Assembly (NCBI GenBank): GCA_964017145.1
Contig: OZ024847.1
Coordinates: 2,480,001 to 2,544,000 of the forward strand
Direction of reading: 5' to 3'
Length of the DNA: 64,000 nt
Source: Agrocybe praecox
Taxonomy: Eukaryota; Basidiomycota; Agaricomycetes; Agaricales; Agrocybaceae
In this document: positions 4,103 through 57,036 of the stretch, one piece after another
Numbering within the stretch: the first letter of the stretch is position 1
Layout of the letters: the number at the start of each line of letters is the position of its first letter
Translations under genes and position numbers: made by a program
Notes under the pieces: model-generated
Databases searched by the model: none
The model's input: the letters and a program-made list of their open reading frames with translations, nothing else
What the model was told of the DNA's origin: nothing

Positions 4103-7100
4103 ATGACAGATCCATTATCCATTACTCTCGCCGCAGTCTCGTTTGCAACAGCACTCAAGGACATCATCGAACTCGCACAAACGCTCAATGACTCGTTTAA
4201 GAAGGTGTGAATTTACCATCGCCGCTGGGCGAAGGCTTCAAAGCTGATCATCACGTTCTTAGCCTGGTCGGAATATGCGAAGGGCAAAATCTCTGGCTGC
4301 GGAGACACTCAAAATCGTACAAGACCTCAAGTCATTCTATGACGGACATAAAGAGATTCTCGACAGTGCACCGGAGATGCAAAAGGCCATATCAAGACTT
4401 TCGGAGTGCGTGTTTATCATCATTAATCGGGCATTTTTATTCACATCTCCTGTAGGGAAATGCAAAGGGTACACGAGGAGTGCAAACCTATACTGCAAAT
4501 TCACTCTGTCTCGGACGGAGAACAACATACCTGGATAAAGCGGAAAGTTGGACCTTGGTGGAACCGGACCAGCCTGGAGGAGGCCATTGAAAATCTACGA
4601 GACGGCGCAAACAAATGCCGAAGTGATTTCATGGTACGAGAATAATCAATCCGCAGGCGGATGTGTGTTGATACGAGTTTTGAAGATGTTTTCCCTGTTG
4701 CGCATGGAAGCTGCTGTCACACATGGGTTTGCTCGCCTTCAACCCCCATCATCGCTTCCTCGAGTGTCGGATAATTATGTCCTCGCCTTCCAAGGTTCCA
4801 CTCCCGTCATATTATCCCATCTCCCCCCACATGTCAAATTAGCCGAACACCTTGTGTATAAGGAGGCTATCACCTTTCAAGTGGGCAAGATCGAGATTCT
4901 ATTCAAAATGGTCGCTTCTGGCGGATTCTATACCGAAGAAGAGCCAGATCAATTATATTTGCAACCTTTTGAGCTTGTCACACGCCTAAACCCTTCCTCG
5001 AAAGAGGAAATAGAAGATTTACAATTCCAAGTCTTTGCTGAGATTGCGAAAATACGCGAAAACTTAAAAGGCAGAAATAATGGACGATCCATCCAGGACG
5101 GCGCATGGGCGATGTCGGATTTATCTGTCTGGCTTGCCAACCTTGATATGCATCATGAATCTTTAGCAATGTCACGGTTTGCTGTAGACCTTTATAGGAT
5201 ACTCACCAAGACAAACGAAGACGTTTATGGACCCCACCTTGTGCATGCACTTTACCTCACATCGTACACGCTTGAGTACACTGGGGAGCATGTACAGGCC
5301 TACAAAGTAATCACAGAGGCTGTGACCCTTGGGCGTCGTCTCGTGGCCGCCAGTCCAACCTTTGATGCCCAAATGCAGCTTGCTCGATTGGTTCGCTACT
5401 GCTCGTATGTCGCGCGTCTGAATGAAGATTTGGAAAATGCCACCCGTGATGCAGAAGAAGCGGTACAAACCTACGAGCATCTAATTGGACAACCCACATC
5501 CGCGTTACAAATGGAAATAAACATCATTGACAACATCTACGGACCAACCGTTATGACATTGAAAGCCACGCGTGTTTACGACTTTGCTCATGCATTGGTA
5601 GAACTGCATTACAGTCTATCTTCAACCAGTAGGAAAGATGAATCAGTAAGAGCAGGAATTAGGGCGCTCGAGATATACAGTGTACTGGAGCAGAGACACA
5701 ATGACACCCATTTCAGTGTTTCAATAGCAGCTCTCTGTTACTCTCTCGCATCCGATGACAATCGGGACATAATTTCCATTGATCAATCTCTTTCCTACGC
5801 CCAAAACGCAGTGTCTCAATATGAGAAGGTCCTTCAACACACCGGAAATGTCGATGAGAACCTTCCTTTTTCCCTGGCAAGGCAAGCTAAGATTTTATCT
5901 GATTTGGGCCGTGTTGAGGAGGCATATGTGGTGTGCCAGAAACTTCAACAAATAGTTCAAAAGCATATTGAGGATTATCAACTCCATGCTAAATCACTTC
6001 TGCAACTAACACGAACTCTTTACCGTTGCAGGCGTTACGTGGAGGCAGCGTCGGTCGGGGAACAATTGGTTGCCATCTGCCAAGGATCACTTTTAAATTG
6101 GGATCTCTACAACGCCTACGCCTACACTTCTATGGCCTTTGAAGGGTCAGGAAACACTCTCAAGGCAGTACAAATTGCGGAGTCAGCAGTCAGCTATTAT
6201 CGCGTTCTAGCATTTCACGATTCTAAACACGTTGAATATCTTGCTGCCAGCTGTGACAGTCTGGCACGTCGACTTCGATCAGCGGCTGAGCACGAACGAG
6301 CCCTTAGTGAAGGACACGAAGCAATGAAGCTGTATAGCAGCTTGATTCAAAAAGACACTACCCATCTAGAGCCATACATGGAAACACTTCAACTAAATAT
6401 GGATATTGCCACACAGGCAAAGATGGAAATCCAGTGGTACCTGGAAAGAAGCCAAGAGGTCATTCAGTATTCTCGGGCACTGGTCAAGCAATTTCCCGAT
6501 CAAAAAATATTTCTTATTCGTCTCATGAGGAAGCACGCAAACCTGTTGGAATACCTCAACCAACTTGCAGAAGCCAGCACCACTATTGAAGAGACTTTTA
6601 GCTGGTTCGACATAGATTCAACTGAAGATGAAGAGTTGGCAGAACTGCACTTTGAAACACTTCTGGTTTCTGGCAGCCTTTTTTTCCATCAAGGTCATCT
6701 CGACAAGGCACTCAACGCCTATGACAAGGCGATCAGAGTTGGGAAACCCTTCGCGAACGGTCATTCTGTTGCCTACAATCTTCTCGTGGCAAAGATAGAA
6801 ACCCTCATGATCTTACATTTTATGGGACATGTTCCACTGGTGCTTGCCAGCATTGAAGACGGTCTTACGTTTGCTGCCGAACATGATTTGGAAGAGGCAT
6901 TTGCGTATGCCTGTTATTTGCAAAATGCGTCACTTGTCTACCGATCTAATGGAGACATCGATAAAGCGGTGTCGAACATGCGACGGTCGATCGACATTGT
7001 TAAAAATCAGAACAAAATTGCATTATTTCCATGGATTTTGTCTGATCTCCTTGCCGACGCCAGGGAGGAAGAAGAAGCTCTTACTGCTGCAAATGAATCC

Positions 7101-7586
7101 ATACGAGATTGCCAGAAGTACAAGGATCATTCCGAAACCATCTGGAGGGAATTCTATTTACAAGCGCAGTACAGTCTAGCCCTTCGTCTTTTCGCCAACA
7201 ACGACCTTGTTCAGGCACGAGAACTACTTCTCGAGGTCCGATCATTTTACCAACAACATTCACAGGCCAGAAATCTTTGGTTCATCAAGCTGGCTATAAC
7301 CCTATGGGCGTTAGGACACCTGGAGTGCGCATCAGGCCGACACGAAGAAGGCATCGCTGCAAGAACCGAACTCACCCAGTTGCGCAAACGACTTCGACTC
7401 ATATTTCCGCGTCTTGATGAATTTGTGGAGGTGGGATTGAAAAGGGAACGAAACTTTGCTGCGTGGAAGAACCTGCTCAAAAAGATCAATGTAACATGTG
7501 GACACCAGGATGAAGATGATATGATTGAAAGTACAGTAGTATCCCAGTTCGAAGATCTGGCAGTCTCGTCGGATGAGCCTTTATAG
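4103..7586 (+). CDS. TPR1: helical-bundle N-terminus plus TPR array protein
   Basis: The model has four exons, 4103-4204, 4263-4405, 4456-4633 and 4686-7586. Its introns of 58, 50 and 52 nt are all GT-AG, and the product is 1,107 aa. Exon 1 encodes an amphipathic helix (MTDPLSITLAAVSFATALKD). Exons 2-3 add further helices with conserved LAAETL, HKEILDSAP, RVHEEC and WIKRKVGPWW blocks. I infer that this resembles the HeLo/MLKL-like N-terminal bundles of fungal NLR-type proteins. From about residue 270 to 1075 tandem TPR-like helical pairs follow, for example SLARQAKILSDLGRVEEAY and GHLDKALNAYDKAI. I see no Walker A, NB-ARC or NACHT block. Unlike its paralogues it lacks the heptad stalk at the start of exon 4, going straight from MFSLLRMEA to AVTHG. 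The start was chosen because exon 1 is conserved in all four copies. Confidence 0.85.
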
Positions 7587-8090
7587 CTGTAATACGCACA
7601 GACTCTTGCTTTCCACTGGTCAAAAGACGCATATTTCACTTATACCTGCAGTCATACTTTTGTAGTACAACATTTGTATCTACCTCAACACACATAAAGT
7701 AATCAAAGGAATAAAGAAACATTTAACAAGGATCGAGAAATGTGTAGAGAGATGTTGGCTTTGAGCGCGTCGAAGTAATAAATCAACACGACAGGACAGG
7801 ACCAAATTGACCGATATTTAGACATTGAACGTTCTTAATATCCCAAGCATCATCAACGTTCAAGGTGCTCTGTGGCAATGGATAAGAATTCAGCGCGGTG
7901 TACTCGATACTATGATCGGACACGAGTTGAGACTCACTAGGAATACTCGATATACTTCCTGGTATTTAATATTTTTATTTGGGTCCATACTGCGCCAAAT
8001 GCAGGATACACGAAGATCGGGAAGTTAAGTAACCTTGAATGAAAATGTTCAGTGCATACACAAACTCAAACGGATATAGCGTACCATTAT
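7587..8090 (+). repeat. Conserved 3' flank shared by the TPR copies
   Basis: This flank is homologous to 15986-16560 downstream of TPR2, and in reverse to 61805-61220 downstream of the TPR5 stub. Shared landmarks include CCTGCAGTCATA, TTGTAGTACAACAT, GATCAACACG-type blocks, TTCCTGGTATTTAATATTTT and AACTCAAACGGATAT. The flank contains AATAAA-like signals (about 7714) and no gene. Homology stops at about 8090, where an unrelated GMC-type coding relic begins. Confidence 0.7.
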
Positions 8091-8094
8091 ATAC

Positions 8095-12399: not shown

Positions 12400-15300
12400 A
12401 TGGCAGATCCGCTATCTATTGCTCTCGCTGCGATCTCGCTTGCAACAGCGCTCAAGGACATTATCGAACTCGCACAAACGCTCAATGACTCGTTCAAGAA
12501 GGTGTGAAGGCAAAGTCACGGTTGGCAGAAGCCCTCAAAGCTGATTGTCTTATTCTTAGCCTGGTCGGAATATGCAAAGGGTAGAATCTCTGGCTGCAGA
12601 GACGCTCGGGATTGTAAAAGATCTCCAGAAGTTCTATGATGGGCATAAGGAGATCCTTGACAGTGCGCCGGATATGCAAGACGCCGTATTAAGGCTATTG
12701 AAGTACGTGTTTAATGTCGCTAATTGGGCATTTCTACTCACATCTCCTGTAGGGAAATAGAAAGGGTACACGAGGAATGCATACCTATATTACAAATACA
12801 CTCTGCCTCGGACGGAAAATTACATACCTGGATAAAGCGGAAAGTTGGACCTTGGTGGAAGCGGAATACCGTGGAGGAATCCATTCGGAGCCTGCGAGAT
12901 GGGGCAAACAAATGTCGAGGTGATTTCATGGTACGAGAATACTCAACAATAAGCCGGATATTTGCTGATATGAATATTAAAGATGTTCGCATTACTACGT
13001 ATTGAAGCCGCCACAGCACAGGTCCAGGCGACGACTGCTCAGGTCGAAGCCTCAACAGCTCAAACTCAAGCCTCTGCGATCCGAATCGAAGCCACCACAA
13101 CCGAAATCCGAGCTGCCGTCACACATGGGCTTGCTCGTCCTCGTGTACAACTGGCACTAAATCCCCAAGTTATGGACGACAGTTTCCTAGCATTCCTGGG
13201 TTCCACCCCCGTCATATTATCCCATCTCCCCCCTCATGTCAAATTAGCCGAACACCTTGTGTATAAGGAGGCCATCACCTGTCAAGTGGGCAAGATCAGG
13301 ATTTTATTCAAAATGTTCGCTTCTGGTGGATTCTATCCTGTAGAAGAGCCAGACAGCTCACATTTACAGTCTTGCAATCTTGTCACTCACTTAACGCCCT
13401 CCACGAAGGAAGAAATAGAAGATTTACAATTTGATGTGTTCGCTCAGATTGCAAAAATACGTGAAAACTTAAAAGGCAGAAATAATGGACAATCAATCCA
13501 GGGTGGCGCATGGGCAATGTTGGATTTATCTGTCTGGCTTTACAACCTCGACATGTACCATGAATCTTTAGCAATGTCGCGGTTTGCTGTAGACCTTTAT
13601 CGGACACTCAGCAAAACAAACGAAGATGTTTATGGGCCCCGCCTCGCGCATGCACTCTATCTCATGTCGTACACGCTTGGGGACACTGGGGAGCTTGTAC
13701 AGGCCTACAAAGCAATAACAGAGGCTGTGACCCTTGGGCGTCGTCTCGTGGCTGCCAGTCCAACTTTTGAAGCCCAAATGCAGCTTGCTAATTTGGTTCG
13801 CTACTCCTCGTATGTTGCGCGTAGGAATGGAGATTTGGAAAATGCCACCCGCGATGCAGAAGAAGCGGTACAAACCTACGAGCGTCTCATAGGAAACTCC
13901 ACATCCGCGTTACAAATGGACGTAAGCATCATGGACAAAAGGCGCGGACCAACCGTTATGACGTTGGAAGCCACGCGTGTCTGCGACTTTGCTCGTGCAT
14001 TGGTAGAGCTGCATTATAATCTATCTGCAACCAGTAGAAAAGATGAATCAGTAAGCGCAGGAATCAAGGCACTTGAATTATACAGTGCACTGGAGCAGAA
14101 GGCCAAGCACACTGGTTTCAGTCGTTTGATAGCAGATATCTGTCACTCTCTCGCCTCCATCGAGTATCGGGACGTAATCTCCATCGAGGAGGCTCTTTCC
14201 TATGCACAAAACGCGGTGCCTCAATATGAGAAGGTCCTTCAACACACCGGAAATGTCCCCCACAACCTTCCTTTTTCCCTGGCAAGGCAAGGCAAGATTT
14301 TATCAGACTTGGGCCGTGTTGAAGAGGCATATGTGGTGTGCCAGAAACTTGAACAAGTAGTTCAAAAGCATATTGAGGATCATCAGCTCCGTGCCAGATC
14401 ACTTCTGCAATTAACGCAAAATCTATTTCACTCGAAGCATTACATGGAGGCCGCGTTGATCGGGGAACAATTGGTTGCAACCTGCCGAGTGTCGCTTTTA
14501 AATGGGAGTCTCTACAACGCCTACATCTACACTTCTTTGGCCTTTGAGAGGTCAGGAAACACTCTCAAGGCAATACAAATTGCGGAATCGGCAGTCAGTT
14601 ATTGGCGTGTGTTGGCATTTCACGATTCTAAAAACGTCAAATTTCTCGCCGCCAGCGTTGACGATCTGGCAGGTCAACTTCTATCAGTGGCTGAACACGA
14701 ACAAGCCCTTAGTGAGGGACACGAAGCAATGAAGCTGTATAGCAGCTTGATTCAAAAAGACGCCACCCATCTGGAGTATTACATGAAAACCCTTCAACTA
14801 AATATGGATATTGCCACACAGGCAAAGATGGAAATCCAGTCCTTGGAAAGAAGCCAAGAGGTCATTCAATATTCTCGGGCACTGGTCAAGCAATTTCCCG
14901 ACCAACAAATATCCCTTATTCGTCTCATCTTGGATCACGCCAACATGTTGGAAAAATTTGACCAACTTGCAGAAGGCGGCGCTGCCATTGAAGAGGCTCT
15001 CAGCTGGTTTGACGCCCATCCATTACAAGATCCAGAATCAGTCAAATTGCAAACCTACGCACTTCTATATTCCTCCAGACTTCTTCTCAATCAAGGTCAT
15101 CTTGACAACGCATTAAGTGTCTATGACAAGACGATCAAGGTTGGGCAATCCTTTGCACACACGGATTCTGAAATTGCATCCAATATTCTCTGGGCGAAGG
15201 CTCTAACCCTTATGACATTTTACTTTATAGGACATGTTCCACTTGCGCTCGCCAAGATTGAAGATTGTCTTACGTTTGCTGCCGAACATGGTTTGGAAGA

Positions 15301-15985
15301 GGAACAGGTGTATACCTTTTACTTGGAAAATGCATTGCTTTTCTACCGATCCAGTGGCGACATCAATAAAGCGGTGTCCAACATGCGACGGTCGATCGAC
15401 ATTGATAGAGGTCATAACAGAATTCCATCTTCATGGATCTTGTCTGACCTCCTTGCCGACACCGGGGACGAAGAAGCTCTTACTGTTGCAAATGATGTCA
15501 CACAAGAACTAGAACAGTTGCAGTTTGAATTCATGACCACCCAAAAGGAGTTCTATGCACAGTCGCAATATACTCTGTCCCTACGTCTCTTCGCAAACAA
15601 CGATCTTGTTCGTGCCCGAGACCTGCTTCTCGAAGTTCGATTATTCTACCAACAACATTCCCAAACCAGAAATCTTTGGTTCATCAAACTGGCTATAACC
15701 ATATGGGCATTAGGACACCTAGAGTGCGCATCAGGCCAACACGAAGAAGGCATCGCTGCAAGAATTGAACTCACCGAGTTGCGTCAACGACTTCGACTCA
15801 TATTTCCCCGTCTTGATGAATTTGTGGAGGTGGGATTGAAAAGAGAACGAAACTTTGCCGCGTGGAAGAACCTCCTAAAAAAGATCAATCTAAAATGTGG
15901 ACACCAGGACGAAGGTGATACAATTGAAAGCGCAGTAATATCCCAGTTCAAAAATCTGGCAGTCTCGTCAGATGAGCCTGTATAG
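12400..15985 (+). CDS. TPR2: helical-bundle N-terminus, heptad stalk and TPR array
   Basis: The exons are 12400-12501, 12560-12702, 12753-12930 and 12983-15985. The introns are 58, 50 and 52 nt and the product is 1,141 aa. The exon phases are identical to TPR1. Residues 1-141 form the predicted helical bundle (MADPLSIALAAISLATALKD; HKEILDSAPDMQ; WIKRKVGPWW). From about residue 150 come five exact heptads of the type AxTAxxx (AATAQVQ, ATTAQVE, ASTAQTQ, ASAIRIE, ATTTEIR), a likely coiled-coil stalk. A conserved segment follows (LPPHVKLAEHLVYKEAI), then TPR-like pairs to about 1110 and an acidic tail ending DEPV. No NTP-binding motif is visible. It is the most complete copy and is apparently functional, with no stop or frame break. 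Confidence 0.87.
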
Positions 15986-21412: not shown

Positions 21413-24400
21413 ATGGCAGATCCATTATCTACTGCTCTCGCTGCGATCTCCCTTGCAACAGCGCTCAAGGACATTGTCGAACTTGCACTCGAGCTCAATG
21501 ACTCGTTCAAGAAGGTGGGAAATCACGGTCGCGGCTGGATGAGGGATTTGTGCTAATTATTTCATTCCTAGCCTGCTCGGAATATGCAAAGGGTGGTATC
21601 TCTGGCTGCGGAGACTCTCGAAGTCGTACAAGAGCTCCAGAAATTCTATAATGGGCACAGGGAGATTCTAGACAGTGCGCCGGATATGCAAAACGCCGTA
21701 CTAAGGCTTTTGAAGTGCGTGTTTAATATCATTAATTGGCAGTCTTTATTCACATCTCCTGTAGGGAAATGGAAAGGGTACACGAGGAGTGCATACCTAT
21801 ACTACAAATTCACTCTGCCTCGGACGGAAAACTGCGTACCTGGATAAGGCGGAAAGTTGTACCTTGGTGGAACCGGGATAGTCTGGAGAAGGTCATTCGG
21901 AACCTACGAGATGGGGCAAACAAATGCAGAAGTGATTTCATGGTACGTGAATGTTTAATACGCAGCTGGGTATGTGTTGACAGGAATATTAAAGATGTTT
22001 GCCTTACTACGTATTGAAGCTACGACGTCTCAGGTCCAAGCAGCCACTGCTCAAACTCAAGCCACTGCAGTCGAAATCCAGGCCACTACAATTGAGATCC
22101 GAGCTGCTGTAACACATGAGCTTGCTCGTCCTCGTGTACAACCACCACGTCTCCAAGTTATGGACAACAACGCCCTGGCCTTCCTGGGTTCCACGCTCGT
22201 CACATTATCCCAACTCCCCCCACATGTCAAATTAGCCGAACACCTTGTGTATAAGGAGGCTATAACCTTTCAAGTGGGCGGGATTGAAATTCTGTTCAAA
22301 ATGATCACTCCGGGCGAATTCTATCTAGTAGAAGAGCCGGATTGTGCACATTTACAGTATTTCACTCTTGCCACTCATCTAGAGCCTTCCACAAAAGAGG
22401 AAATACAGGATTTACAATTTGATGTGTTTGCTCAGATTGCAAAAATACGCGAAAACTTAAAAGGCAGAAATAATGGACGATCAATCCAGGACGGCGCATG
22501 GGCGATGTCGAAGTTATCTGTCTCTCTTTCCAGCCTCAATATGCATCATGAATCTTTAGCAATGGTGCGGTTTGCCGTAGACCTTTATCGGATACTCACC
22601 AAGACAAACGAGGATGTTTATGGACCACACTTTGCGCATGCACTTTACCTGCTGTCGTACAGGCTTGTGGACACTGGGGAGCTTGTACATGCCTACAAAG
22701 TAATCACAGAGGCTGTGACCCTTGGGCGTCGTCTCGTAGCTGCCAGTCCAACCTTTGAAACCCAAATCCAGCTTGCTGATCTGGTTCGCTGCTTCGCCTA
22801 TGTTGCACGTCTGAATGGAGATTTGGAAAATGCCACTCGCGATGCAGAAGAAGCGGTACAAGCCTACGAGCGCCTGATTGGACAACCCACATCCGTGTTA
22901 CAAATGGAAGTAAACATCATTGACAAAATGTGTGGACCAACCATTATGACGTTGGAGGCCACGCGCGTTTACGCCTTTGCTCATGCGTTGGAAGAGCTGC
23001 ATTACACTCTATCTTTAACTAATAGAAAAGATGAGTCAGTGAGCGCAGGAATCAAGGCACTCGAACTATACAGTGCACTGGAGTGGAGGGGCAATCACGC
23101 CTATTTCAGTGTTTCGATGGCACATCTTTGTTACTCTCTTGCATCCGATGACTATCGGGACGTAATCTCTGTCGAAGAGGCTCTTTATTTCACACAAAAA
23201 GCAGTGTCTCAACACGAGAAGGTCCTTCAACACACCGGAAATGTCCCCCGCAACCTTCCTTTTTCCCTGGCAAAGCAAGCCAAGATTCTATCAGATTTGG
23301 GCCGTGTTGAGGAGGCATATGTGGTGTGCCAGAACCTTGAACAAATAGTTCGAAAGCATATTGAGGATCGTCAGCTCCACGCCAAATCACTTCTGCAACT
23401 AACGCAAAATCTTTTCCATTGCAGGCGTTACGTGGAGGCAGCGTTGGTCGGGGAACAATTGGTTGCAACCTGCCGAGTATCACTCCTAAATTGGAATCTC
23501 TACAATGCCTACGCCTATACCTCTAGGGCCTTTGAAGAAACAGGAAACACTCTCAAGGCAGTACAAATTGCGCAGTCAGCAGTCAGCTATTGGCGCATTC
23601 TAGCATTTCACGATTCTAAAAACGTCAACTTTCTTGCTGCCAGCGTTGACAATCTGGCACGTCGACTTCTATCAGCGGCTGAGCACGAACGAGCCCTCAG
23701 TGAAGGACAAGAAGCAATGAATCTGTATAACAGCTTAGTTGAAAAAGATCCTTGTCTGGTGAAGCGTTACATGGAAGTTCTTCAACTAAATATGTACATT
23801 GCCGCACAGGCAAAGATGCAAATACAGTCCTTGGAGAGAAGCCGGCAGGTCATTCAATATTCTCGGGAGCTGGTTAAGCAATTCCCCGACCAACAAATAT
23901 CTCTTATTCGTCTCATCTCGGATCACGCCAACCTGTTGAGAAATCTTGACCAACTCGCAGAAGGTGGTGCTGCCATTGAAGAGGCTCTCAGTTGGTTTGA
24001 CGCCCACCCAGCCGAAGATCCGCAATCAATCAAATTGCACACTGACACACTTCTATATTCTGCCAGACTTCTTCTCGATCGAGGTCATCTTGACGAAGCA
24101 TTAAGTGCCTATGACAACGCGATCAGAGTCGGACAACCCCTCGCGAACACCTATTCTGTCGCCTCCAATCTTCTCTGGGCAAAGGCTGAGACCCTCATGA
24201 TATTATATACTATGGGAGATGTTCCACTTGCGCTCGCCAACATTGAAGATTGTCTGACGTTTGCTGCCAAACATGACTTGGAAGAGGATGGGGCGTATAC
24301 CTTTTACTTGGAAAAAGCATCGCTTATCTACCGATCGAGTGGCGACATCGATGAAGCGGTATCCAACATGCGACGGTCGATCGACATTGATAAAAATCAG

Positions 24401-24922
24401 AACAGAATCACATTATCTTCATGGATCTTCTCTGATCTCCTTGCCGACGCCGGGGAGGAAGAAAAGGCTCTTACTGCTGCAAATGAAACCATACAGCATT
24501 GCCAGAAGTGGAAAGATAATCCCCTAACCATCTTGAGGGAATTCTACGTACAGGCGCAGTACAGTTTGGCCTTACGTCTCTTTGCCACCAATGCTTTCGC
24601 TCGGGCACGAGAACTGTTTCTGGATGTCCGCTCATTTTACCGACAACATTCACAGACCAGAAATCTTTGGTTCATCCAGCTAGGTATAACGCTATGGGCG
24701 TTAGGCAACCTAGAGTGTGCATCAGGCCGACACGAAGCAGGTGTGGCCGCCAGGAACGAGTTTGATGAATTGCGCAAACGACTGCGCCTCATATTCCCAA
24801 GCCTCGATGATCTTGTGGAAGTGGGCTTGGCTCGCGAGAGAAGATTTCCAGCGTGGAATAATCTTCTTGAGAAACACAAGTTTATATGCGGACACCAAGA
24901 GAATTGTCTAGAGCCGTCATAA
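21413..24922 (+). CDS. TPR3: helical-bundle N-terminus, heptad stalk and TPR array, altered C-terminus
   Basis: The exons are 21413-21514, 21572-21714, 21765-21942 and 21995-24922. The introns are 57, 50 and 52 nt and the product is 1,116 aa. The N-terminal bundle is conserved (MADPLSTALAAISLATALKD; WIRRKVVPWW). Four heptads (ATTSQVQ, AATAQTQ, ATAVEIQ, ATTIEIR) form the stalk. TPR-like helical pairs run to about residue 1090. The C-terminus ends shortly after ICGHQ with ENCLEPS. TPR1 and TPR2 have about 20 more residues here, acidic and ending SSDEP(L/V), and their common 3' flank is missing downstream. Homology to the unit stops inside the last codons, so this gene marks the end of the left array. 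It is otherwise intact. Confidence 0.85.
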
Positions 24923-32209: not shown

Positions 32210-34159
32210 CTAAGTAAACCGACTCATAAACCCACCAACCCTCGAAGGAGGCCTGACACTTGCACTCCTGTTCATGCCCATACCGAGCCCCAGCTTGTCC
32301 CTTCCATCACGCGCCGGATGGACGACAAAATCGTCATCCGCCGCATGCTGGTGCTGGTGCGTATGCCCATGCGTAGAAGGTATCCAACGCTCGTGCGCGT
32401 CTGCCTTTTCCTCGCTCGTGCTGCGGGTCATCATCTTAGGCGGAGACGGGGGAGTAGAGAGACGACGAGGCTTGGGAGGGATAAGCGGGGCAGGCGTCTG
32501 CGTGCGGTGTTGCATTGACGCGGAGGTGGGTGCGGGTGTAGCGTAGCGTGAGGGGATGGAAGGTACTGGAGGTGCACCATATACCGACGAGGACAAAGAC
32601 ACCGACGCAGATTGGTAGTGCGATGATGGTGTCGGTGTCTGAGAGCGCAGAGAGGGTGTATGAGAGCGCATGGAAGATGCATGGGACAAACCAGGCCCAG
32701 GTGTGTGCGAGCGCGGTATAGAATGTGGAAGAGCTGCTGCAGCTGCTGATGCAGAGGACAATCCTGGGCCAGGAGTGTGGGATCTCGGGGACACGCCAGG
32801 TGTGTGAGATCTTGGAATTGTCGGTGCGGGTGTATGGGAGCGAGTGGGTGACACGGGAGTGGAATGTGAGTGGGTCATGGAGGGGGTCATTGGGCGGGAA
32901 GACATGGATGCGGAGCGGATGTGCATGCCATTGAGTCTGGACAGCGGCGAGGTGGCGCCTGAGCTCGTTGACGATGGGAACTCTCTCTGTGGCGTGCTGA
33001 ACGGTGCTGGCGATGGTGTTGGCGATGTTGGGGCTGTCGTTGATTCAGGGACAGAAACGCCAAGCGTGGTAGCGAGAGCGCGCAATTGACCGACTTCCTG
33101 GCGTAATTGTTGGCATTCTTGGGCTTTCGTGTTGTACTGGGATCGCTAAAAATAAAACCATAAGTTCTTTGTCACTTTTTTTTTCATTCTTGTCGGGCAT
33201 GGACTTACGTATCTAAAGGCAGATATTAGTCACCGTAAAATGGAGAAGAGAGAGGATTACACACCTTCGGGACTCTGCTTCCAGTTTGTCGGTCTGTATT
33301 TCGAGATCTTCGATTTTATTTTTCATGTTGACTTCGGCAGCCTTGGAAGCCTTGCTCGCGTCCGAATGCGCGACATGATTCATGAGAATAGCGCGTAAGA
33401 GAGCAGCGCTGAGGAATAGCGATGAGGTCTGTCATGATTCGTTAGTAATCCGCTCGAGTCAAGCAACAGCGCAAAGTCCGGAGGAATGGACAAAAGGGGA
33501 AACTTGAAAAAAAAGTTTGTGGGCGTAGGGTTACGCACGTCTAAAAATATATGCGCATACATGAAAAAAAAAAAAAAAGCCCCCGCAACGAAGACGATAA
33601 TGGTATTGCCAGCGAGGGGGGGAATAACAATGGTAGCAGACACTCACCAGTTCATCCTTCTCCAGCTTCAACCACTCTTCGAGTTCCTTGTACAGAGAAG
33701 AAACCTCCTCAACGGAACATTTTTTGGCAGCAACCTTTGCGACTCTGTCTTCTAACCTGCGGACCTCAATTCTGACTTTGCCGCCTCCTCCGTTAAGCAG
33801 CTGTTGGGTTTTCCTTTGGAGCATTTCGGTGCTAAAGTCCGTGAGTGTTTCGATAGCAGGAACTCTTCGTGGGGTGCTCCATCCGGAAGTCGTGAAATCC
33901 ATACGAATGAGACGCGCGGAATCGGTGGTGAATTGTTCGCGACAGAAGGGGCATACAGGCGCAAGCCGAGGAGAGGTTTTCTCGACGATGGTTTCGCAAC
34001 AGCTTGCACAGAGGACATGGCCTGTAAAAAGCATGAATAAAATCGAGAAAACGAGTAAAAGGCATATTACGCACCACATGGAATAGAGTGTGGTAGTTTT
34101 TGAGGACCATATTCCTCTGCACAAACATCGCAAGCACATCCGGGGGCGAGAGTAAGCAT
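32210..34159 (-). CDS. RING-finger/coiled-coil protein, probable E3 ligase-like
   Basis: The model reads five exons on the minus strand, 34159-34075, 34021-33648, 33428-33265, 33212-33209 (4 nt) and 33145-32210, totalling 520 aa. Residues 10-55 form a C3HC4 RING: C10-x2-C13, C28-x-H30, C33-x2-C36, C52-x2-C55. A helical and coiled-coil region spans about 100-235 (LYKELEEWLKLEKDE; IEDLEIQTDKLEAESRR; QECQQLRQEVGQLRALA). The remainder is a Ser/Pro/Thr-rich, probably disordered tail with repeated SHTPG motifs. RING proteins generally bridge E2 enzymes and substrates; the substrate here is unknown. The ATG at 34159 lies nine codons before the RING, and an in-frame upstream extension is possible but proline-rich and less likely. 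Part of the last exon was duplicated at 891-1455. Confidence 0.82.
33209..33212 (-). other. 4-nt micro-exon (ATAC) of the RING gene
   Basis: Exon 3 ends in phase 2 (…CGA AG). The final exon must be read CGA TCC CAG to open its 312-codon frame. Splicing exon 3 directly to it shifts the frame. Between them, on the minus strand, CCTTTAG|ATAC|GTAAGTCC gives a perfect acceptor, four bases, and a strong donor. Those four bases restore the phase (AG+A, TAC). Confidence 0.75.
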
Positions 34160-34740
34160 TGCGCCTGAACTGAATTTTTTATGGAAAGAAATGGTGGGAG
34201 ACGCTGCAGCAAAGCAAAGAGGACTCAACGGGCGGGGTTGGAGGGGAGGAGGGAAAGGGCGGGAGGGGAGGGAGGGAGGTGGTGAGTACCAAGATGCTTT
34301 GAATGGGCGAAGGGGAGAAAAATGTCGACCAGAGTGAGGAATCATCAATAAATAGCTCGCGTTGATCTGTTATCCCGATTCGGACAATCAGCCAAACAAC
34401 ATGCTCCTTTAATTTCCTCAAGCGAACCGATTATATTTTCTGTTCACTCCGTAAAACCGAACCACCCATGGTTCGCTTCTAACCAGATAATCGCTTCTTA
34501 CCAGATAACAGTCTGAGGCTTCACAATACACAATGAACAATGCACAGAAATGCCCAAATCCCAAAAAGGCAATTTCCCGAGTCAAGTCCGCTCCCTCTGA
34601 AAAATTCCCACGCGGCGGTCGCTGAAACACGAGGCTCACTCCCATGATGCGGCTTTGACGTGGCTGGCCGGTCCAATCATACCCGCCTCTTCACCGTCTT
34701 TTTTTCGCAGAATTTCTGCCCCCTAAAAATTACTTCGTCC
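34160..34740 (-). promoter_or_regulatory. RING-gene upstream region
   Basis: This is the 5' flank of the minus-strand RING gene. On the coding strand it is pyrimidine-rich just upstream of the ATG (CCTCCCTCCCCTCCCG-type tract at about 34255-34285), a common feature of fungal leaders. No specific regulatory site is claimed. Confidence 0.35.
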
Positions 34741-42088: not shown

Positions 42089-42096
42089 CATTGAAC

Positions 42097-42306: not shown

Positions 42307-44494
42307 ATGGACTTGGGAACTATATGCAGCACACTCAAGCATTATCCGTTCCTTCTTCGTCTCAAATACAAGACAATTTCTCAATTTCTCCGTTACTCAT
42401 CTTTTGCTCGGGGTCAGATAGAGGCCGAAACTGTCAATATTCATTTTCCTCCGGACCTAATCTCGCTCAGGCTACAAAAGATACTAGCGTCATGCATTGA
42501 TGAAGATATCAACATAATTCCGCAACTATGGTCAGCTTTTAAGGACGAAGTCTGGCACTCAATGAAGATTTCTGCAACACATGAAGAGATACAGAATTAT
42601 AACAAGTATAGTTTGTGCGCTGGAACCTGTGCGTAAATATTTTGTCTTTCTTTTCTCTAAAAGCTGATAATAATATAGCATACCGACATCTCTATCCACC
42701 TACGCGTGTCTGCTTATTTCCTAATTGCAGAAATTATCGCAATTCAAATTTTGTATCGACCCTTGTTGAGGCTAGCACATACCCAGCTACCTTATTTACA
42801 CTGCGTGAAGGCACACTACCTATTTACACCACATCATTATACTGTCGAGGTAGGTAAGCTATGATAACTGATCATACATCAACTTCTTTAATTTATTTTC
42901 AGGCTGTCATCGGCGATACCATCACAACTTCATTGTGCATGGCAGTTCCAATGCGCGAGAATACTACGGTGGAGTCCCTGAGGTCATTGAAGTGGCAGAA
43001 CACTTCTTTTTCGACCGGCCGCTGCTTGAATTCTTTGCTGTAGGCATGCTTTTTGGATGGTACGTTAATTCAAACATCAAATGATATCTTTTCTTAAAGA
43101 TATTTCTTAGGCTCTCCTCCCTCGCTTTGGCTCAAATCTTCAACCAGTCCCTATCCAATTTATACTCCGATGTTGTTAATAATCACCATGCGTTTCCACC
43201 TGTCATGCGTAATTTTCATGCAACAGAGCTCCCACATGGGTGGCTTAAATCTTCTATGACCCTACAGGATGTCCATGTATTAAATGGATTTTTTCTTTAC
43301 AGTGTCCTTCTCGATTACGCCGAGCGTGACCACCCACTTATTCTTGATCATGGTGGAGCTAGCCAGAGGGATCGACTTAAGGCCGTCCTTAAGGAACGCA
43401 ATGAGAGAATGAAAGGAACTGGACAGGAAGAGTATACGCATGCCTGCAAGGCATGCTTTTTTATTACGGAGGATGAAAACGGGCACAAAAGTATGTTTTA
43501 TTGATGTCAATATTTTCTATTACTCACATTCTTGTGCAGGTAAAATTCACCCTGCCGTGTGTGATGGCGTCTCTGTTGGCCACCCATGCTGCAGTTCTCA
43601 TGGTTGCTCCAACCCTCTCGAAAATAATAGGGCTCTGTACTGCAAGTTACATGAATCCAAGATCAACGAGTGTGCTGTACGAGGCTGTGAAAATCCGTGT
43701 GAACCGCAATTCTATACCTGTGCTATTTCTGAACACCGTACGCTCGAGAACAATTACTACAAAAATGACAGGGCAGTTTTCACGCTTCGCTCAAGACTAC
43801 AAGATGCTCACTCACTTGAGGCTGACGTGACAACAGAAGATGCCTCTATGGAAGATCCAACATGCGACAAAAAACTCGAGACTGGTAACCGCAAATTAAA
43901 AGCCACATTTGGAAGAAAGCGCTCACATAATGAGCAATTCATGATACGTCCCTGTGGTATTATTCTTTCGCGAGCCACATTATTTGGCTCCGAGGCTCTT
44001 ACTGCTGTTAAAGTAAATTTTTGCCCCGTTTATTCAAACCTCTGTTATTGATTTTTGTTTAGGAATTTATGAAGGCTACATTTCCAACACCAGAGTCTAC
44101 TCCCGAATTCTACGTGTACGACAACAACTGCCAAATGCACTCTCATTTAATGGCACAAAATGACGAGCATTTCCAAAACACAGCCATGCCCGTTGACGTA
44201 TTCCATTTCAAAAGCAAACATAAGGTCACAGACACGCATTGTCAGCAATATTGCAACCCAGCCGCATTTCCCGAACTTATGGACGGTGACAAATGGAAAA
44301 TCAACACATCGATATGCGAGCAAACAAATTCGTGGATAGTCAAATATCTTGCGATTTTACGTGACATGGAAGCTACAAGATTCTGTTTTTATTTGGATGA
44401 GATGGTCAAACGTCGTAATAGGTACAAGGTTAAGGAGCTTAAAGAAAAAGGGTATTGTCCATGGAATATCCCTGTATCCACTCTTTTTCCGTAG
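42307..44494 (+). CDS. KDZ transposase with CxC5 and CxC6 clusters
   Basis: The six exons are 42307-42628, 42679-42849, 42903-43059, 43111-43490, 43540-44012 and 44063-44494. The introns are 48-53 nt, the frame stays open throughout, and the product is 644 aa. A CxC5-type cluster is formed by C119, C124, C163 and C166 (YPPTRVCLFPNC…LYCRGC). A CxC2C pair lies at C329/C332. A CxC6-type cluster includes C360, C366, C378, H381, C388, C393 and C397. The candidate RNase H-fold triad is D352 (CDGVSVGHPCC), D521 (YVYDNNC) and E587 (CEQTN), with the conserved FHFKSKHK and CNPAAFPEL blocks between the last two. All are present, so this copy may be catalytically competent. It would cut at the terminal repeats. 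The ATG context (CAAAAATGG) supports the start. Confidence 0.85.
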
Positions 44495-45696: not shown

Positions 45697-48180
45697 TTAC
45701 AAAGGCGAAAGTCCAAGGGCATGGCATAGGGGATTACACTTGCGATGATCGTGGATAAAATGCTGAACGCCCCAGTATTGTGAATTTCCGATGTAGTACT
45801 TCTCGTCTTCACTTTCGTTAGCATGGATCCTGTGAAACTCGCAGTCCACCACCAAAAGCGACCCGTTGTTTTGAATATATCCTATGGCATAATATATTAG
45901 ATGAGTTATGCCGAGAGACAGGGCATTACAAAAAATACCTTGAAAATTCCGAATGGAAATTTCGCCCTTGCTTTTCAGATACACGAAATGTTCGAGAGCA
46001 TCCATAGTCTCTGCAGCCTCCAGGTTGAATTGTCGAAGGTACATTGATGCTTGAATCCTGGTGCTGCTAAAATGAGTGCCTGATGCGTACTCTTGAGCTA
46101 CGTCTGTCCATAGATATTGGCGAGGAGCCTTCAATGGGTCAACAACTGCAAGAGCAAGCCACGTTCTAGCAAATTTAAAAGCTGGATATAAAGTTTCGGC
46201 ATCAAAAATGAGAAAGCAATAGTTAAAACGACTCACGATAAATATCAATAATGCCTTTTTGTGAAGCCTGCTCAAGAAACTCGTCTGCAAAAGTCATGCA
46301 TCGAACAAATCGTTGAGCATCCAATGAGACAGCAAGTTCTCGAGGGCAGACATCAGTTGGGGAAGGCCAGGCATCAGGCAAATGGAGTTTCTTGACAACA
46401 CGATCCATAACACTAAATTCAGCATTCCAGATCTATATGATTGCAAGTCAGTGTTCGAAGGAAAGAAAATAGTAAGAAATAGTACTCACCTTATGGATAG
46501 TACGACACTGTCCCGTAGAACTCGGAGTTGACTGGATATAGCATTTGATGGTATCGAAAGTATTCGTAACTTGGGTCGGTAAATTGTTCAACTCTACCTC
46601 ACGAAACTCTACAAAGAAAGTTTCGGCTTGTGCACGTATGTCATTTGCTTTGAGAACATCTACCAGTAGTTGACAAAAATAAAAACCTTCAGTGTATATT
46701 TTTTTTACAAAATTAACGGTGGTACTCACTTTGCTTCAGTACAGCCCAAGTTCCCTGAGTGGAGATGCCAGACGCAATGGATTTTTGTAGAATACCTGCT
46801 TCACGAGCTTGGCGGTAAACATCAAAGAATTTGTAGTTGGTCGATGCTTGACTAAACCCAGGGAAAAACCGTGGAAAGAGGTTCTTGAAGGTGTTGTTTT
46901 TGGGATCGAGTTCCATCTCCTGGCAAATTTTTTCGAATTGTTCTTTGGCCTCGCATACATAAAGATCAACCAATCGACGACTCTTCTCTTCTGCAGGTAA
47001 GGTGGATACAGATGGACGAGGTGGTGTGGATAATTGTTGCGGCTCTGCTTCAGTATCAGGTGAAGTCTGTCTTGCTTTTTTTGTGAGAGGGTGTGGTGAC
47101 AGAATGGCGCTGATTTGTTCTGATAGGCCTTGGTATAAAGAGACGTCCACCCGTCAATCTCGGACAATAAGAGGGCTTCCTGGTTTTACGCGTGCTGGAA
47201 TACTTGGATTGCTAAGGCCTATCCAATCCGGGGGAGAGCACGTAAGATCAAAATAAGCCAATGCATGCTCGGGAATGTGTGCCTTCGTGACCATCTCCAT
47301 AAAGCAAAACTCACGACGGAGAATACAGAGTTTCGGTGGCGAGTGAATTGGGATTGTAAATCGAATTGGCATTTTATTACCAGGCTATATACAGATAGTT
47401 AGCAGTGATTAGAGAATATTTGAGAGGAATGACATACATGAGAGAAAAAGAACAGTTCAATAGTATGCTCGGCATCGGATAACGTCTGAAGGACCGTGAC
47501 ATCTCTCTTTTTGAGCAGCTCCTGCTCGTTTTTTGAATCAACGCCATATTTCGTAGCTGTAAATTCCCGACCCCAGATTCGTCGAACATGAGTTTTCGTG
47601 GCATTGGCCTTGGGTGTGACTGGGACAGATGGAGAGGAAGGTGGCGATGAAGGAGTAGATGGTGCAGAAGCCATGGGACTGTAGCCTAAAGATGGCTTGT
47701 TGTGCGCTTTTTGACAGCCACCGTTAAGGTAACAATGTGCCTTGCACTGGCGCCGTGGACAGTCCTTGTTAGCTTGTCTCGGTTTATTAATCGAGACTTG
47801 CCTACACCCCGGGAATTCACAATCAAGCCGCACACCAGCTTCTTTCGCAGACGCAACAAGGGCTTGACTAAGTCGTAGCTCCTCTGGTATCCTCTCTTCA
47901 GGGTGTTTGGCACTACTGTGGTAATGATACCTCCAGCATGAAAGACACTAAAAAGATGATTAGGTGAATAAGCACATTCACATAATTTAGTGAACAAGCA
48001 CGGTACCTGCTGCATCCATCGTCCACGGTTGCTAATGTCAGTGGTTCCTTTACATAGCTGAAAGGATTGTCGAAGGGCACCAGAGCATGCTTTACAGGCA
48101 GCCTTCAGCTCATGATTGCCTGGACGCGGGTACACAGGCTCGATATTATCTTGAGCAGGTGAGCTCATGATGGTTTGCAT
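45697..48180 (-). CDS. Alpha-kinase-like protein with N-terminal cysteine cluster (transposon cargo)
   Basis: Supported minus-strand exons are 48180-48007, 47947-47438, 47384 to about 46730, 46659-46490, 46432-46237, 46182-45939 and 45881-45697. The N-terminus carries a cysteine cluster: CKACSGALRQSFQLC, RGRWMQQCLSC, CEFPGC, CPRRQC. It is followed by a Ser/Pro linker (TPSSPPSSPSVPVTP). The C-terminus has alpha-kinase hallmarks: ALEHFVYLKSKG, NFQG, LLVVDCEFH, and a zinc-site-like HRKCNPLCHALGL tail. Alpha-kinases phosphorylate Ser/Thr in helical substrates. The usual DxQG aspartate is Asn here (NFQG), which suggests weak or lost catalysis. An in-frame TGA at 47156-47154 interrupts exon 3 unless an extra intron (GT at 47189) removes it. 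The middle part is only partly resolved, so gene versus pseudogene is open. Confidence 0.62.
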
Positions 48181-48537: not shown

Positions 48538-48575
48538 TTATCCCATCATTCTCGTGGGACGTTATCTCCCAGTGG
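48538..48575 (-). repeat. KDZ right terminal inverted repeat
   Basis: This is the exact reverse complement of 42097-42134. It ends CTCCCAGTGG and is followed by the octamer GTTTGAAC. Confidence 0.88.
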
Positions 48576-48583
48576 GTTTGAAC

Positions 48584-53467: not shown

Positions 53468-56400
53468 TCATATAGGTTCATCCGACGGAAGTCCTATATT
53501 TGCAAATTGGGATATTACTGCGCTTTCGAGTATATCGTCTTGGTCTTGGTGCCCGCACACAAGATTGATGTTTTTGAGGAGATTCTTCCACGCTGCAAAA
53601 TTTCGTTCCCTTTTCAACGCCACCTCCACAAGATCATCGAGGCTCGGGAATATGAGGCGCAGACGTTTGCGCAGGTCAGCGAGTTCGCTCCTGACGGCGA
53701 CACCTTCTTCGTGTCGGTCTGACGCGCACTCTAGGTTTCCTAACGCCCATAGGGTTATAGCCAGTTTGATGAACCAAAGATTCCAGGTTTGTGAATGTTG
53801 TTGGTAGAATAATCGGACGTCCAGGAGCAGTTCTCGTGCCTGATCCAGGTCGTTGTAGGCGAAGAGACGTAGGGAGAGACTGTATTGAGCTTGTGCATAG
53901 TATTCCTGGTTCCTGGTTTTGGAGGACTTCTTCCACCTCTCGCATGCTTGTATAGCCTCGTGTGCAGCAATAAGAGCCTCTTCCTCCCCAGCGTCAGCGA
54001 GCAGATCAGATAAAATCCACCAACGTGGAGTTGTGTTATGATATCTAAGAATGTCAATCGACTTTCGAATGTTGGATTCAGCATTATCGATGTTCCCACT
54101 GCATCGGTAGACAAGTGATGAATTAGTCAAATAAAAGGCATACCGCACGTCCTTCAAATCACGTTTCGCAGCAAACATGAGACAATCTTCAATCCTGTCG
54201 AGCGCAAGTGGAACTTGTCCCATAATATATAATATCATGAGGGTTTCAGTCCTTGCCCAGAGAAGTGAGGAGGCAACATAATGAGCGTTCGCGAAGGGTT
54301 GTCCAATCTTAATCGCCTTGTCATAGGCGATTAATGCCTTGTTAGGATGACCCTGATCGCAAAGAAGTCTGCCAGAAGCTACAAGTATGACGGTGTGCAG
54401 TCCAGCCGAATCTTCTTCTTCAGCTGGATGAGAGCCAAACCAAGTGAGAACCTCTTCAATAGCGGCACTGCCTTCTGCAAGTTGGTCAGAGTCTTCTAGC
54501 AGCTCTATGTGCTCCCGGAGGAGACGAATAAGAAACATTTGCCGGTCGGGAAATTGCTTGACCAGTGCCCGAGAATGTTGAATGACCTCTCGGCTCCGTT
54601 CCACAGACTTGGGTTCCATATAGCAAGATCCATATTCAGTTCAAGGATTTCCTTGTAGCCCTTCACCAAAAAGGGGTTTTGTTTAATCAAGCCGCTATAA
54701 AGCTTCATTGCTTCATGGCCTGCACCGAAGGCCCGTCCATAATCAGCCGCAGAACAAAGTCGACGTGCCAGATTGTCAAAGCTAGCAGCAAGAAATTTAA
54801 CGTTTTCAGAATCGTGAAATGCTAGCATGCGCCAATGGGTGACAGCTGATTCCGCAATTTGTACCGCCTTGAAAGTGTTTCCTTCGTGTTGAAAGGCGTT
54901 GGAAGTATACCAATAGACATTGTACAGATCCCAACCTATCAGCGAAGACCGGTAGGTTGCCAGTAATTGTTCCCCGACCGACACTGCCTCCACGTAACGC
55001 CTTGAATGGTAAAGAGATTCCATTAGATGCAAAAGTGATTTGGCACGGAGCTGATGATCCTCAATATGTTTTTGCACTATTTGTTCAAGTTTCTGGCATA
55101 CCACACCTGCCCCTTCAATGCGGTCCAAATCTGATAAAATCTTAGCGTACCTCGCCAGGGACAGAGGAAGGTTTCCAGGAACATTTCCAGTCAGTTGAAG
55201 TACTTTCTCGTACTGAGATGCCGATTGTTGTGCGTATGAAAGAGATTGATTGATGGACATTACGTCCCGATACTCGTCGGATGCAAGGGAGTGACAAAGA
55301 TATGCCATCCAAAGACTGACATCGGTGTAGTTGTGCCCAACCCTCTGATCTAGTGCACTGTATAGTTCGAGCGCCTTGATACATGCGCTTACTGATTCAT
55401 TTTTTCTACTGGTTGAAGACAGACTGCAATGCAGCTCCCCCAGTGCCTGAGCAAAATCGTTGATTTGTGTCCCGTCCAACGTCATAACGATTGGTCCACG
55501 CATTTCGTTTATGATGTTTACTTCCATTTGCAAGACAGATGTGGGTTGTCCAATTAGGCGCTCGTAGGTTTGCACCGCTTCTTCTGCATCGCGGGAGGCA
55601 TTTTCCAAATCTCCATTCAGACGCGCAACATAGGAGGAATAGCAAACCAAACGAGCAAGCTCGATTTGGGCTTCGAAGGTTGGATTGGCAACCACGAGAC
55701 GACGTCCAATGGTCACAGCCTCTGTTATTGCTTTGTACGCTAGGACATGGTCCCCAGTGTCTACACGACTGCACGATATGTGGTAAAGTGCATGCGCAAG
55801 GCGGGGTCCGTAAACATTACTGTTTGTCTTGCTGAGTATCCTGTAAAGGTCCATGGTAAACTGCGCCATTGTGAAAGATTCTTGATACATGTTGAGGATT
55901 GCAAGCATTGTACACAACTGCGACATTGCCCATGCACCGCGCTGGATCGACAATCCATTATTGTGTCGGCCTTGGATGCTATCTTGTATCTTCACTATGA
56001 GGGAGGAGATATTGGATTGTACATCTTCTATTTCCTCCTTGGTAACGGGCGTTAGAAAAATGACAGACCGAAAAGGTTTCAAATGTACACTATCCGGCTC
56101 TTCAACTGGATATGGTCCGCGAGAAGAGAGGGATTTGAATAGGGTGTCGATCTTGCCCACTTGAAGGGTGATATACTCCTTATACACAAGGTGTTCGGCT
56201 AATTTGACATGTGGGGGAAGTTGGGATAATATAAAGGGAGTGGAACCCAGGAAGGCTAGGACGTTGTCATCCGGCACGTGAGCGGTTGATGGTTGCAGAC
56301 GGGGGCTAGCAAACCCGGCATGCATAACAGCACCTCGTATTTCGATAGCGGTCGCCTCAATTCGGACCGCAGTGGCCTGAGTGTGAGCAGTAGCGGCTTG

Positions 56401-57036
56401 GACCTGAGACGTTGTAGCCTCAATACGTAGTAATGCATACATCTTTCAAGGTAAATATATTTCTGTCAACATATATCCAGCTGCGTATTGATTAATCTCG
56501 TACCATAAAATCACTTCGACATTTGTTTGCGCCATCTCGCAGATTTCGAATGGATTCCTCCACGCTATTCCGCTTCCACCATGGACCAACTTTCCGCTTT
56601 ATCCAGGTACGTAGTTTCCCGTCCGAGGCAGCGTGGACTTGTAGTATAGGTATGCACTTCTCGTGTACCGTTTCCATTTCCCTGCGGGGTATGTCAATCA
56701 AACGGCTCAATTAGTAATATTAAACACGCACTTCAATAGCCTTAGTACGGCGTCCTGCATATCCGGCACACTGTCTAGAACTTCTCTATGCGCATCGTAG
56801 AATTTCTTGAGCTCTTGTACGCTTCCGAGCGTCTCCGCAGCTAGAGATTCTGCTCTTTGCATATTTCGACCAGGCTAAGAACGAGATACTCTCAGCTTTA
56901 AGGCCTTCGTTCAGTTGCGATGGAGAATCCGCACCTTTTTAAACGAGTCATTAAGCTTTTGTGCGAGTTCGATAATGTCCTTGAGTGCTGTTGTGAGCGA
57001 GACTACGGCCAGAGTAATTGATAATGGATCTGCCAT
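53468..57036 (-). pseudogene. TPR4: inverted paralogue disrupted by a frameshift
   Basis: The minus-strand exons are 57036-56935, 56874-56732, 56681-56504 and 56442-53468, with the same phases as TPR1-3 and introns of 60, 50 and 61 nt. The N-terminal bundle (HKEVLDSVPDMQ-type block, WIKRKVGPWW), four heptads (ATTSQVQ, AATAHTQ, ATAVRIE, ATAIEIR) and TPR pairs are all recognisable. Near 54620 the frame breaks. Where TPR2 has a segment of 63 nt, from the AAT of NMDIA to the GTC of QEV, TPR4 has 53 nt. This net 10-nt loss removes most of the TQAKMEI-equivalent region and shifts the frame. Without it the remaining 383 codons would be open to the DEPI stop, so the lesion looks recent. A sequencing or assembly error is the main alternative. 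The truncated product would be about 786 aa. Confidence 0.8.

What the first reader, a model, noticed from the sequence alone, without database searches (positions are those of the whole stretch)
4103..57036. Paralogous proteins joining a HeLo/MLKL-like helical bundle directly to a TPR array, without an NTPase
Seen: four copies plus a stub, with identical exon phases and a short amphipathic N-terminal bundle encoded by three small exons. In two of the three intact copies, and in TPR4, a heptad stalk follows. Then come about 800 residues of TPR-like repeats. No Walker A or NB-ARC/NACHT block lies between. Known: fungal NLR-type STAND proteins couple HeLo-like death-fold domains to an NTPase and to TPR, WD or ANK repeats. 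Inference: these could be NTPase-less receptors or executors in self/non-self recognition or regulated cell death, expanded as a birth-and-death cluster.
Basis: partly seen in the sequence, partly recalled or inferred. Interest (0 to 1): 0.75.

Follow-up and report, generated by a model that had tools for sequence, protein, structure and literature searches.

The report
Receptor-like mushroom TPR family without NTPase
A mushroom-type fungus carries at least 62 related gene copies, some broken and most on one large contig, for proteins that join a small helical bundle straight to a long repeat domain whose inner groove changes unusually fast, which looks like a recognition repertoire built without the usual molecular switch.

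Summary
The window carries three intact genes and one frame-broken copy with the same four-exon layout, plus a 3' stub. Each joins a short helical domain directly to an all-helical TPR array. No NACHT, NB-ARC or Walker A was found, and a full-length model of a Galerina homologue has no beta strand. The finding is larger than the window: the genome holds at least 62 loci, 55 on one contig. Of 43 loci fetched whole, 41 give the same gene model and 34 of those are intact. Across 31 paralogues the N-terminal domain is constrained (omega 0.27), while TPR groove positions 2, 5, 9, 12 and 13 diversify (pooled omega 1.77 over 14 repeats; weaker over all 17). The same positions are unusually variable in Agrocybe pediades. 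The stalk is 5+7n residues long in all 37 copies the pattern matched. This is the anatomy of a receptor repertoire. The N-terminal bundle is predicted as a four-helix bundle, but kinship with HeLo/MLKL stays unproven: one of 29 copies gives a sub-threshold SesA match. Most likely these are NTPase-less receptors that signal through, or kill by, their N-terminal bundle. Groove recognition is well supported; the executor step is inferred.

The parts
4103..4633 (+). TPR1 exons 1-3 (4103-4204, 4263-4405, 4456-4633): N-terminal helical bundle
   Evidence: lengths 102/143/178 nt shared by 40 of 41 modelled loci
4686..7586 (+). TPR1 exon 4: no heptads in the stalk (n=0), connector, TPR array; intact
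12400..12930 (+). TPR2 exons 1-3 (12400-12501, 12560-12702, 12753-12930): N-terminal bundle
12983..15985 (+). TPR2 exon 4: stalk with n=5 heptads, connector, TPR array; intact
21413..21942 (+). TPR3 exons 1-3 (21413-21514, 21572-21714, 21765-21942): N-terminal bundle
21995..24922 (+). TPR3 exon 4: stalk with n=4 heptads, connector, TPR array; intact
56504..57036 (-). TPR4 exons 1-3 (56935-57036, 56732-56874, 56504-56681): N-terminal bundle
53468..56442 (-). TPR4 exon 4 (stalk n=4), frame-broken: one frame ends at 54505, the rest reads in another frame 53468-54640
   Evidence: locus L055
61843..62039 (-). stub: C-terminal ~60 codons of a further copy
   Evidence: (I18, I19, D11)
60619..61314 (-). 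3' flank belonging to the stub, like the 3' flanks of TPR2 and TPR4
   Evidence: (D8, I21)

Best explanation
These are intracellular receptors made as one chain without an NTPase. The TPR superhelix binds variable protein or peptide ligands (non-self, pathogen or partner-strain molecules) in its concave groove; that groove is the part under diversifying selection. The conserved connector and a heptad stalk couple it to a conserved N-terminal four-helix bundle. Ligand binding is proposed to release or cluster the bundles through the stalk. The bundles then either insert into a membrane, as the MLKL and HeLo bundles do, or nucleate another effector. Shown by computation: architecture, absence of a recognisable NTPase, expansion and decay, conserved bundle, diversifying groove, whole-heptad stalk lengths. 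Inferred: the ligand, clustering, membrane action, cell death.
For: Omega by region over 31 paralogues: N-domain 0.27, connector 0.47, TPR A helices 0.87, B helices 0.53. Groove positions 2, 5, 9, 12, 13 over 14 repeats: pooled omega 1.77, 2dlnL 43.9 against omega=1; exposed B-helix positions 0.44. Ten sister pairs (chosen from the tree, counted without it): 1.29 against 0.24 for exposed B and 0.22 for the N-domain. Among all 278,256 five-position sets the groove set ranks 8th by pN (14 repeats) and 26th (17 repeats). In Agrocybe pediades it ranks 65th by amino-acid diversity (17 paralogues). At least 62 loci, 55 on contig C8; 34 intact and 7 broken of 41 modelled; recent pairs at 98.6-99.2% protein identity. 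Stalk length 5+7n in all 37 copies the pattern matched, of 41. Four-helix N-domain; all-helical full-length model with TPR solenoids as fold matches.
Against: HeLo/MLKL kinship is not shown: SesA match in 1 of 29 N-domains, below cut-off. The 50-row fold tables list FAT, talin, chemoreceptor and designed bundles, and Foldseek had no match at E 0.001 or better. The bundle model is only moderately confident (pLDDT 75.9). With all 17 repeats pN/pS of the groove set falls to 1.00 in sister pairs; A exceeds B in 14 of 17 repeats, reversed in the last three. Groove dN exceeds dS in 8 of the 10 sister pairs, not in L057/L067 or L037/L047. Other exposed A-helix positions reach 1.20, not different from 1. 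Gene conversion among tandem copies can distort tree-based fits. Whole-heptad changes are also what slippage in a 21-bp repeat would give. No expression, ligand or strain data.
Confidence: 0.55

Rival explanations
1. Sensor or decoy subunits: the TPR array recognises ligands, and the N-terminal bundle pairs with the bundle of a separate NACHT-type NLR or other executor, which does the killing.
For: The genome has a very large NACHT set (150 scored of 376 candidates, all 150 over cut-off), 146 of the 150 on other contigs. The bundle is strongly conserved (omega 0.27), as a shared docking surface would be.
Against: No NACHT gene carrying this N-domain was found: searches returned only relatives whose listed Pfam domains are TPRs, though their word-based sensitivity is low. 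One search did return a NACHT-TPR protein of Coprinopsis marcescibilis (P0040), but at 26% identity over 16% of the query and with another N-terminus by eye. Of the 150 listed NACHT hits none lies in C8 2.01-2.69 Mb; two lie within 0.78-1.17 Mb (1.086 and 1.109 Mb).
Confidence: 0.25
2. Adaptor or scaffold family: expanded TPR proteins binding many endogenous clients (trafficking, ubiquitin or RNA complexes), with no role in recognition of non-self.
For: Full-length fold matches are housekeeping TPR scaffolds such as Ski3, IFT-A, OGT and APC/C.
Against: Adaptors for fixed clients would be under purifying selection at groove positions; here these diversify. At least 62 copies, with 7 of 41 modelled ones broken, is unlike a housekeeping family.
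Confidence: 0.12
3. Relaxed, redundant family: expansion by tandem duplication, with elevated omega from relaxed constraint rather than positive selection, and no sharp function.
For: 7 of 41 modelled copies are broken; omega over whole TPR halves is below 1 (0.71 and 0.60); groove pN/pS is 1.00 over all 17 repeats.
Against: Relaxation does not give omega above 1 at one surface (1.77; 1.29 in sister pairs, both over 14 repeats) while buried A positions stay at 0.55 and exposed B positions at 0.44.
Confidence: 0.08

Closest known systems
Fungal NLR/STAND proteins with TPR repeats (NACHT or NB-ARC plus TPR; PMC4986451, passages read)
   Same: N-terminal domain and C-terminal TPR array; TPR positions under positive selection on the concave side, as that paper reports for a Podospora NLR; expansions of paralogues
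   Different: No NTPase between them in the proteins here
MLKL (four-helix bundle, brace, pseudokinase; PMC12881547, passages read; the brace is recalled)
   Same: A bundle linked by a helical connector to a C-terminal regulatory domain, with no oligomerising NTPase
   Different: The regulatory domain is a variable TPR superhelix, the gene is a multi-copy family, and no sequence or fold search here tied the bundle to MLKL
Basidiomycete MLKL-like N-termini (BaMLKL) and SesA/HeLo-like domains of fungal NLRs (PMC9815663, passages read)
   Same: Four-helix bundle at the N-terminus; the divergent copy L069 matches Pfam SesA over nearly its whole length at E 8.8e-5
   Different: Below Pfam's cut-off and in 1 of 29 N-domains only; no NOD follows
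Uncharacterised TPR proteins of Galerina marginata, Psilocybe cyanescens and Agrocybe pediades
   Same: Homologues with the same N-domain and only TPRs among their listed Pfam domains (Galerina P0029, P0044, P0046; Psilocybe P0045; Agrocybe P0014-P0028, P0030-P0032, P0049)
   Different: 24-40% identical to the two copies compared; the heptad stalk is not seen, by eye, in the Galerina sequences

Membership tests
Fungal NLR/STAND protein | central NTPase (NACHT, NB-ARC or AAA) | tested here: not met
   No Pfam NTPase at E up to 1 in TPR1 or TPR3; no Walker A in 45 models; no beta strand in the homologue's model
Fungal NLR/STAND protein | C-terminal WD, ANK or TPR repeat sensor | tested here: met
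   Pfam TPR matches, about 17 helix pairs, TPR fold matches
Fungal NLR/STAND protein | repeat sensor under diversifying selection at ligand-facing sites | tested here: met
   over 14 repeats; over all 17 repeats pN/pS is 1.00
HeLo/HELL/SesA/MLKL bundle | N-terminal four-helix bundle | tested here: met
   Helices 4-33, 38-62, 71-93, 102-157 in the Galerina homologue, pLDDT 75.9
HeLo/HELL/SesA/MLKL bundle | profile match to the family | tested here: inconclusive
   SesA in 1 of 29 N-domains, 23.1-23.4 bits against cut-off 26.3; no SesA hit in a six-frame search of the genome, which cannot see across introns
HeLo/HELL/SesA/MLKL bundle | specific structural match to solved HeLo or MLKL | tested here: inconclusive
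   Four-helix bundles of many unrelated kinds fill the tables
HeLo/HELL/SesA/MLKL bundle | membrane targeting and cell killing | not testable with these tools
   needs expression
TPR protein | tandem helix-turn-helix repeats with Pfam TPR match | tested here: met

The most novel reading that the evidence does not exclude
An NLR-scale recognition repertoire that works without any nucleotide switch: single-chain receptor-executors in which a hypervariable TPR groove takes the place of MLKL's pseudokinase, and a phase-locked stalk of 0-6 heptads transmits binding or sets oligomerisation of a membrane-active four-helix bundle. On one contig of this genome it has grown to at least 55 loci, and Agrocybe pediades has a clustered expansion too.
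Probability: 0.35. Interest if true: 0.87.

Novelty: new variant of a known kind. Interest (0 to 1): 0.7.

Why it matters
As far as I know, surveys of fungal immune receptors such as PMC4986451 and PMC9815663 collect proteins by their NTPase, so a family without one would be missed. If this family recognises non-self, basidiomycetes have a second large receptor repertoire, and the NTPase is not essential to couple a repeat sensor to a helical effector. It gives groove codons and stalk lengths that can be tested directly, and candidates for the poorly known genes behind somatic incompatibility in mushrooms.

Tried and rejected
Pfam on the N-domain gave mostly weak coiled-coil noise. SesA is the only hit with a family logic. 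In one search only 25 of 49 families are listed, so a single SesA match weaker than about E 0.015 could be hidden; one search listed matches up to E 0.02 only and held 9 of the 10 N-models (L077 was left out). PDB by sequence gave no meaningful relative (the best hits are chemoreceptor coiled coils at E 0.004). MLKL and HeLo were not in the 50 rows shown by either fold search. A Pfam SesA search of the whole genome found nothing.

A partner gene in the duplicated unit was looked for: homology between the intergenic stretches is confined to patches of up to about 1 kb at promoters, 3' flanks and scattered pieces, so no partner gene was recognised. Conserved promoter blocks exist across 41 copies, but they are loose and were not pursued.

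Per-position omega fits returned starting values (1.000/1.000) for 10 of 38 positions and 12 of 34; those single positions are not interpreted. Outside the groove set positions 1, 6, 8, 10, 18, 30 and 33 also exceeded 1 (30 and 33 barely), and position 20 gave 5.6, before the register was mended, and no fit. The restriction to the first 14 repeats was made after seeing that the last three reverse, so 17-repeat results are given too. The repeat register of repeats 4, 7 and 13 was corrected by hand. Dropped before the codon analysis: L069 (divergent), L033 and L068 (near-identical twins) and the 7 broken copies; 20 of the 62 loci were not fetched whole. One fetched locus, L071, is not among the 62 but comes; it and L070 gave no model. 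P0014 (a tandem fusion) and P0049 were left out of the Agrocybe test.

Papers: PMC9815663, PMC4986451 and PMC12881547 were read as passages only; the rest as search listings. That no paper describes this family rests alone.
Full report
What is there. The window lies in a 59.2 Mb genome (C8:2480001-2544000); homologues point to a mushroom related to Galerina, Psilocybe and Agrocybe. Four genes share one layout: exons of 102, 143 and 178 nt, short introns of 50-61 nt in the same phases, then one exon of about 2.9-3.0 kb. TPR1, TPR2 and TPR3 are intact (1107, 1141, 1116 aa). TPR4 is frame-broken in exon 4. A fifth copy is reduced to its last ~60 codons at 61843-62039.

The family is genome-wide. 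A search with the first 300 residues of TPR3 exon 4 gives 65 matches at E up to 1e-8, which I merge by hand into 62 loci, broken and fragmentary ones included; 55 are on contig C8, at 0.78-1.17, 2.01-2.69 and 2.88-3.16 Mb. Of 11 further loci I fetched the N-domain stretch. Of the 43, 41 gave the four-exon model, 40 with exactly 102/143/178 nt; of the 11, 10 gave the N-domain model. Of the 41, 34 are open to more than 950 aa in exon 4 and 7 are broken. Near-identical pairs (L033/L037 99.2%, L067/L068 98.6% protein identity) show recent births. The exon-3 matches at 2.087, 2.092 and 2.104 Mb recur at 2.203, 2.213 and 2.189 Mb with equal scores and identities, and two of the latter three (L046, L050) are broken. 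This is birth and death in progress.

No NTPase. Pfam's only matches over their cut-offs in TPR1 and TPR3 are TPR families, and no Walker A pattern occurs in 45 models. The AlphaFold2 model of the Galerina homologue P0029 (36-row alignment, mean pLDDT 80.6) has no strand at all: an N-terminal helical part, a helical connector at about 197-270, then about 17 TPR helix pairs. Its fold matches are TPR scaffolds. The pLDDT is low (37-46) over residues 141-190, so the junction itself is not well modelled.

N-terminal domain. Modelled alone (Galerina P0029, 17 rows, pLDDT 75.9) it is a bundle of helices 4-33, 38-62, 71-93 and 102-157, the last running past the end of exon 3 towards the stalk position, with a short helix 64-67. 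Fold searches show a four-helix bundle but not which kind. The divergent copy L069 matches Pfam SesA, the N-terminal domain of NACHT and P-loop NTPases, over residues 10-130 at E 8.8e-5 (6.9e-5 when trimmed), below the cut-off. The other 28 N-domains scanned show no such match in the listings (one search's list is cut). I treat HeLo/MLKL kinship as plausible and unproven.

Selection. On 31 intact paralogues and one tree, omega is 0.27 for the N-domain, 0.47 for the connector, 0.87 for TPR A helices and 0.53 for B helices. A exceeds B in 14 of 17 repeats, and B exceeds A in the last three. I took the groove positions 2, 5, 9, 12 and 13 from general knowledge of TPR structure (recalled). Over 14 repeats their pooled omega is 1.77, against 1.20 for other exposed A positions (not different from 1), 0.55 for buried A positions and 0.44 for exposed B positions. 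Ten sister pairs, chosen from the tree but counted without it, give 1.29, against 0.24 for exposed B and 0.22 for the N-domain; groove dN exceeds dS in 8 of the 10. Of all 278,256 sets of five motif positions, 8 reach the groove set's nonsynonymous divergence over 14 repeats and 26 over 17, itself counted; by ratio the counts are 35 and 51. With all 17 repeats pN/pS is 1.00, so the claim of omega above 1 rests on the first 14. In Agrocybe pediades, at protein level, the groove set ranks 65th of 278,256 (17 paralogues, two assemblies mixed) and 276th using the 10 proteins with one assembly's locus tags. So the pattern recurs in a second genus. The 2014 survey of fungal NLRs reports positive selection on the concave side of a Podospora NLR's TPRs (PMC4986451, passages); here it appears in proteins without a NOD.

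Stalk. From the start of exon 4 to the EIRAAV motif the distance is 12, 19, 26, 33, 40 or 47 residues, always 5+7n, in the 37 of 41 copies where the pattern was found. Of the other four, by eye, TPR1 reads as n=0, L063 as 26, L066 has a one-residue deletion just after, and L069 lacks the stalk. Whole-heptad variation fits a coiled coil that must keep its register, and also slippage in a 21-bp repeat; the two are not exclusive. Stalk omega is 0.28, like the bundle.

How it probably works. Constant N-terminal bundle, stalk of variable whole-heptad length, conserved connector, hypervariable groove: this is how a receptor repertoire looks. With no nucleotide switch, activation would have to come from release or clustering of bundles on ligand binding, as in MLKL, where the pseudokinase domain unleashes a four-helix bundle (PMC12881547, passages). 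The executor step is inferred. A sensor that hands the signal to separate NLRs is the main rival; the genome has a very large NACHT set (four of the 150 listed hits on C8, two of them within 0.78-1.17 Mb), and 11 NB-ARC matches, none on C8.

Compared with what is known. It shares layout and selection with fungal TPR NLRs but fails their defining NTPase test, so it is not filed as an NLR. It works like one at the sensor end. PMC9815663 describes the Goodbye/HeLo/MLKL-like domains as the most frequent superfamily of basidiomycete NLR N-termini (passages). My paper searches found no account of this NTPase-less family, but most subscription papers are not held.

Limits.

Noticed in passing
window exon 4 starts (4686, 12983, 21995, 56442) and paralogues: The alanine-rich stalk after the bundle varies only in whole heptads (5+7n residues) across the 37 of 41 copies that the pattern matched.
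   Followed up: yes
43413-44051 (+): CxC6 cysteine cluster associated with KDZ transposases (Pfam E 1e-22), so a KDZ-type element seems to sit between the copies.
   Followed up: partly
45697-46293 (-): Open frame with an alpha-kinase family match (E 4.7e-6); the nearby frame 47399-47947 has a cysteine-rich stretch. Possibly one degraded gene.
   Followed up: no
33531-34178 (-): RING-finger-like frame (C3HC4, E 4e-4, below cut-off) beside a serine/proline-rich frame at 32210-33145.
   Followed up: no
637-1455 (-) and 32210-33145 (-): Two serine/proline-rich reading frames share a duplicated stretch (1288-1454 with 32867-33033, 90% identical).
   Followed up: no
L033, L048, L049 against L037, L050, L046 (C8 2.087-2.108 and 2.188-2.217 Mb): What looks like a recent segmental duplication of three family genes; two of the second block's three copies carry early stops.
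   Followed up: partly
   Followed up: partly
genome G000: Very large NACHT (NPHP3_N, PF24883) repertoire: 150 scored of 376 candidates, all 150 over cut-off, with groups on contigs C1, C2, C3, C6 and C7.
   Followed up: no
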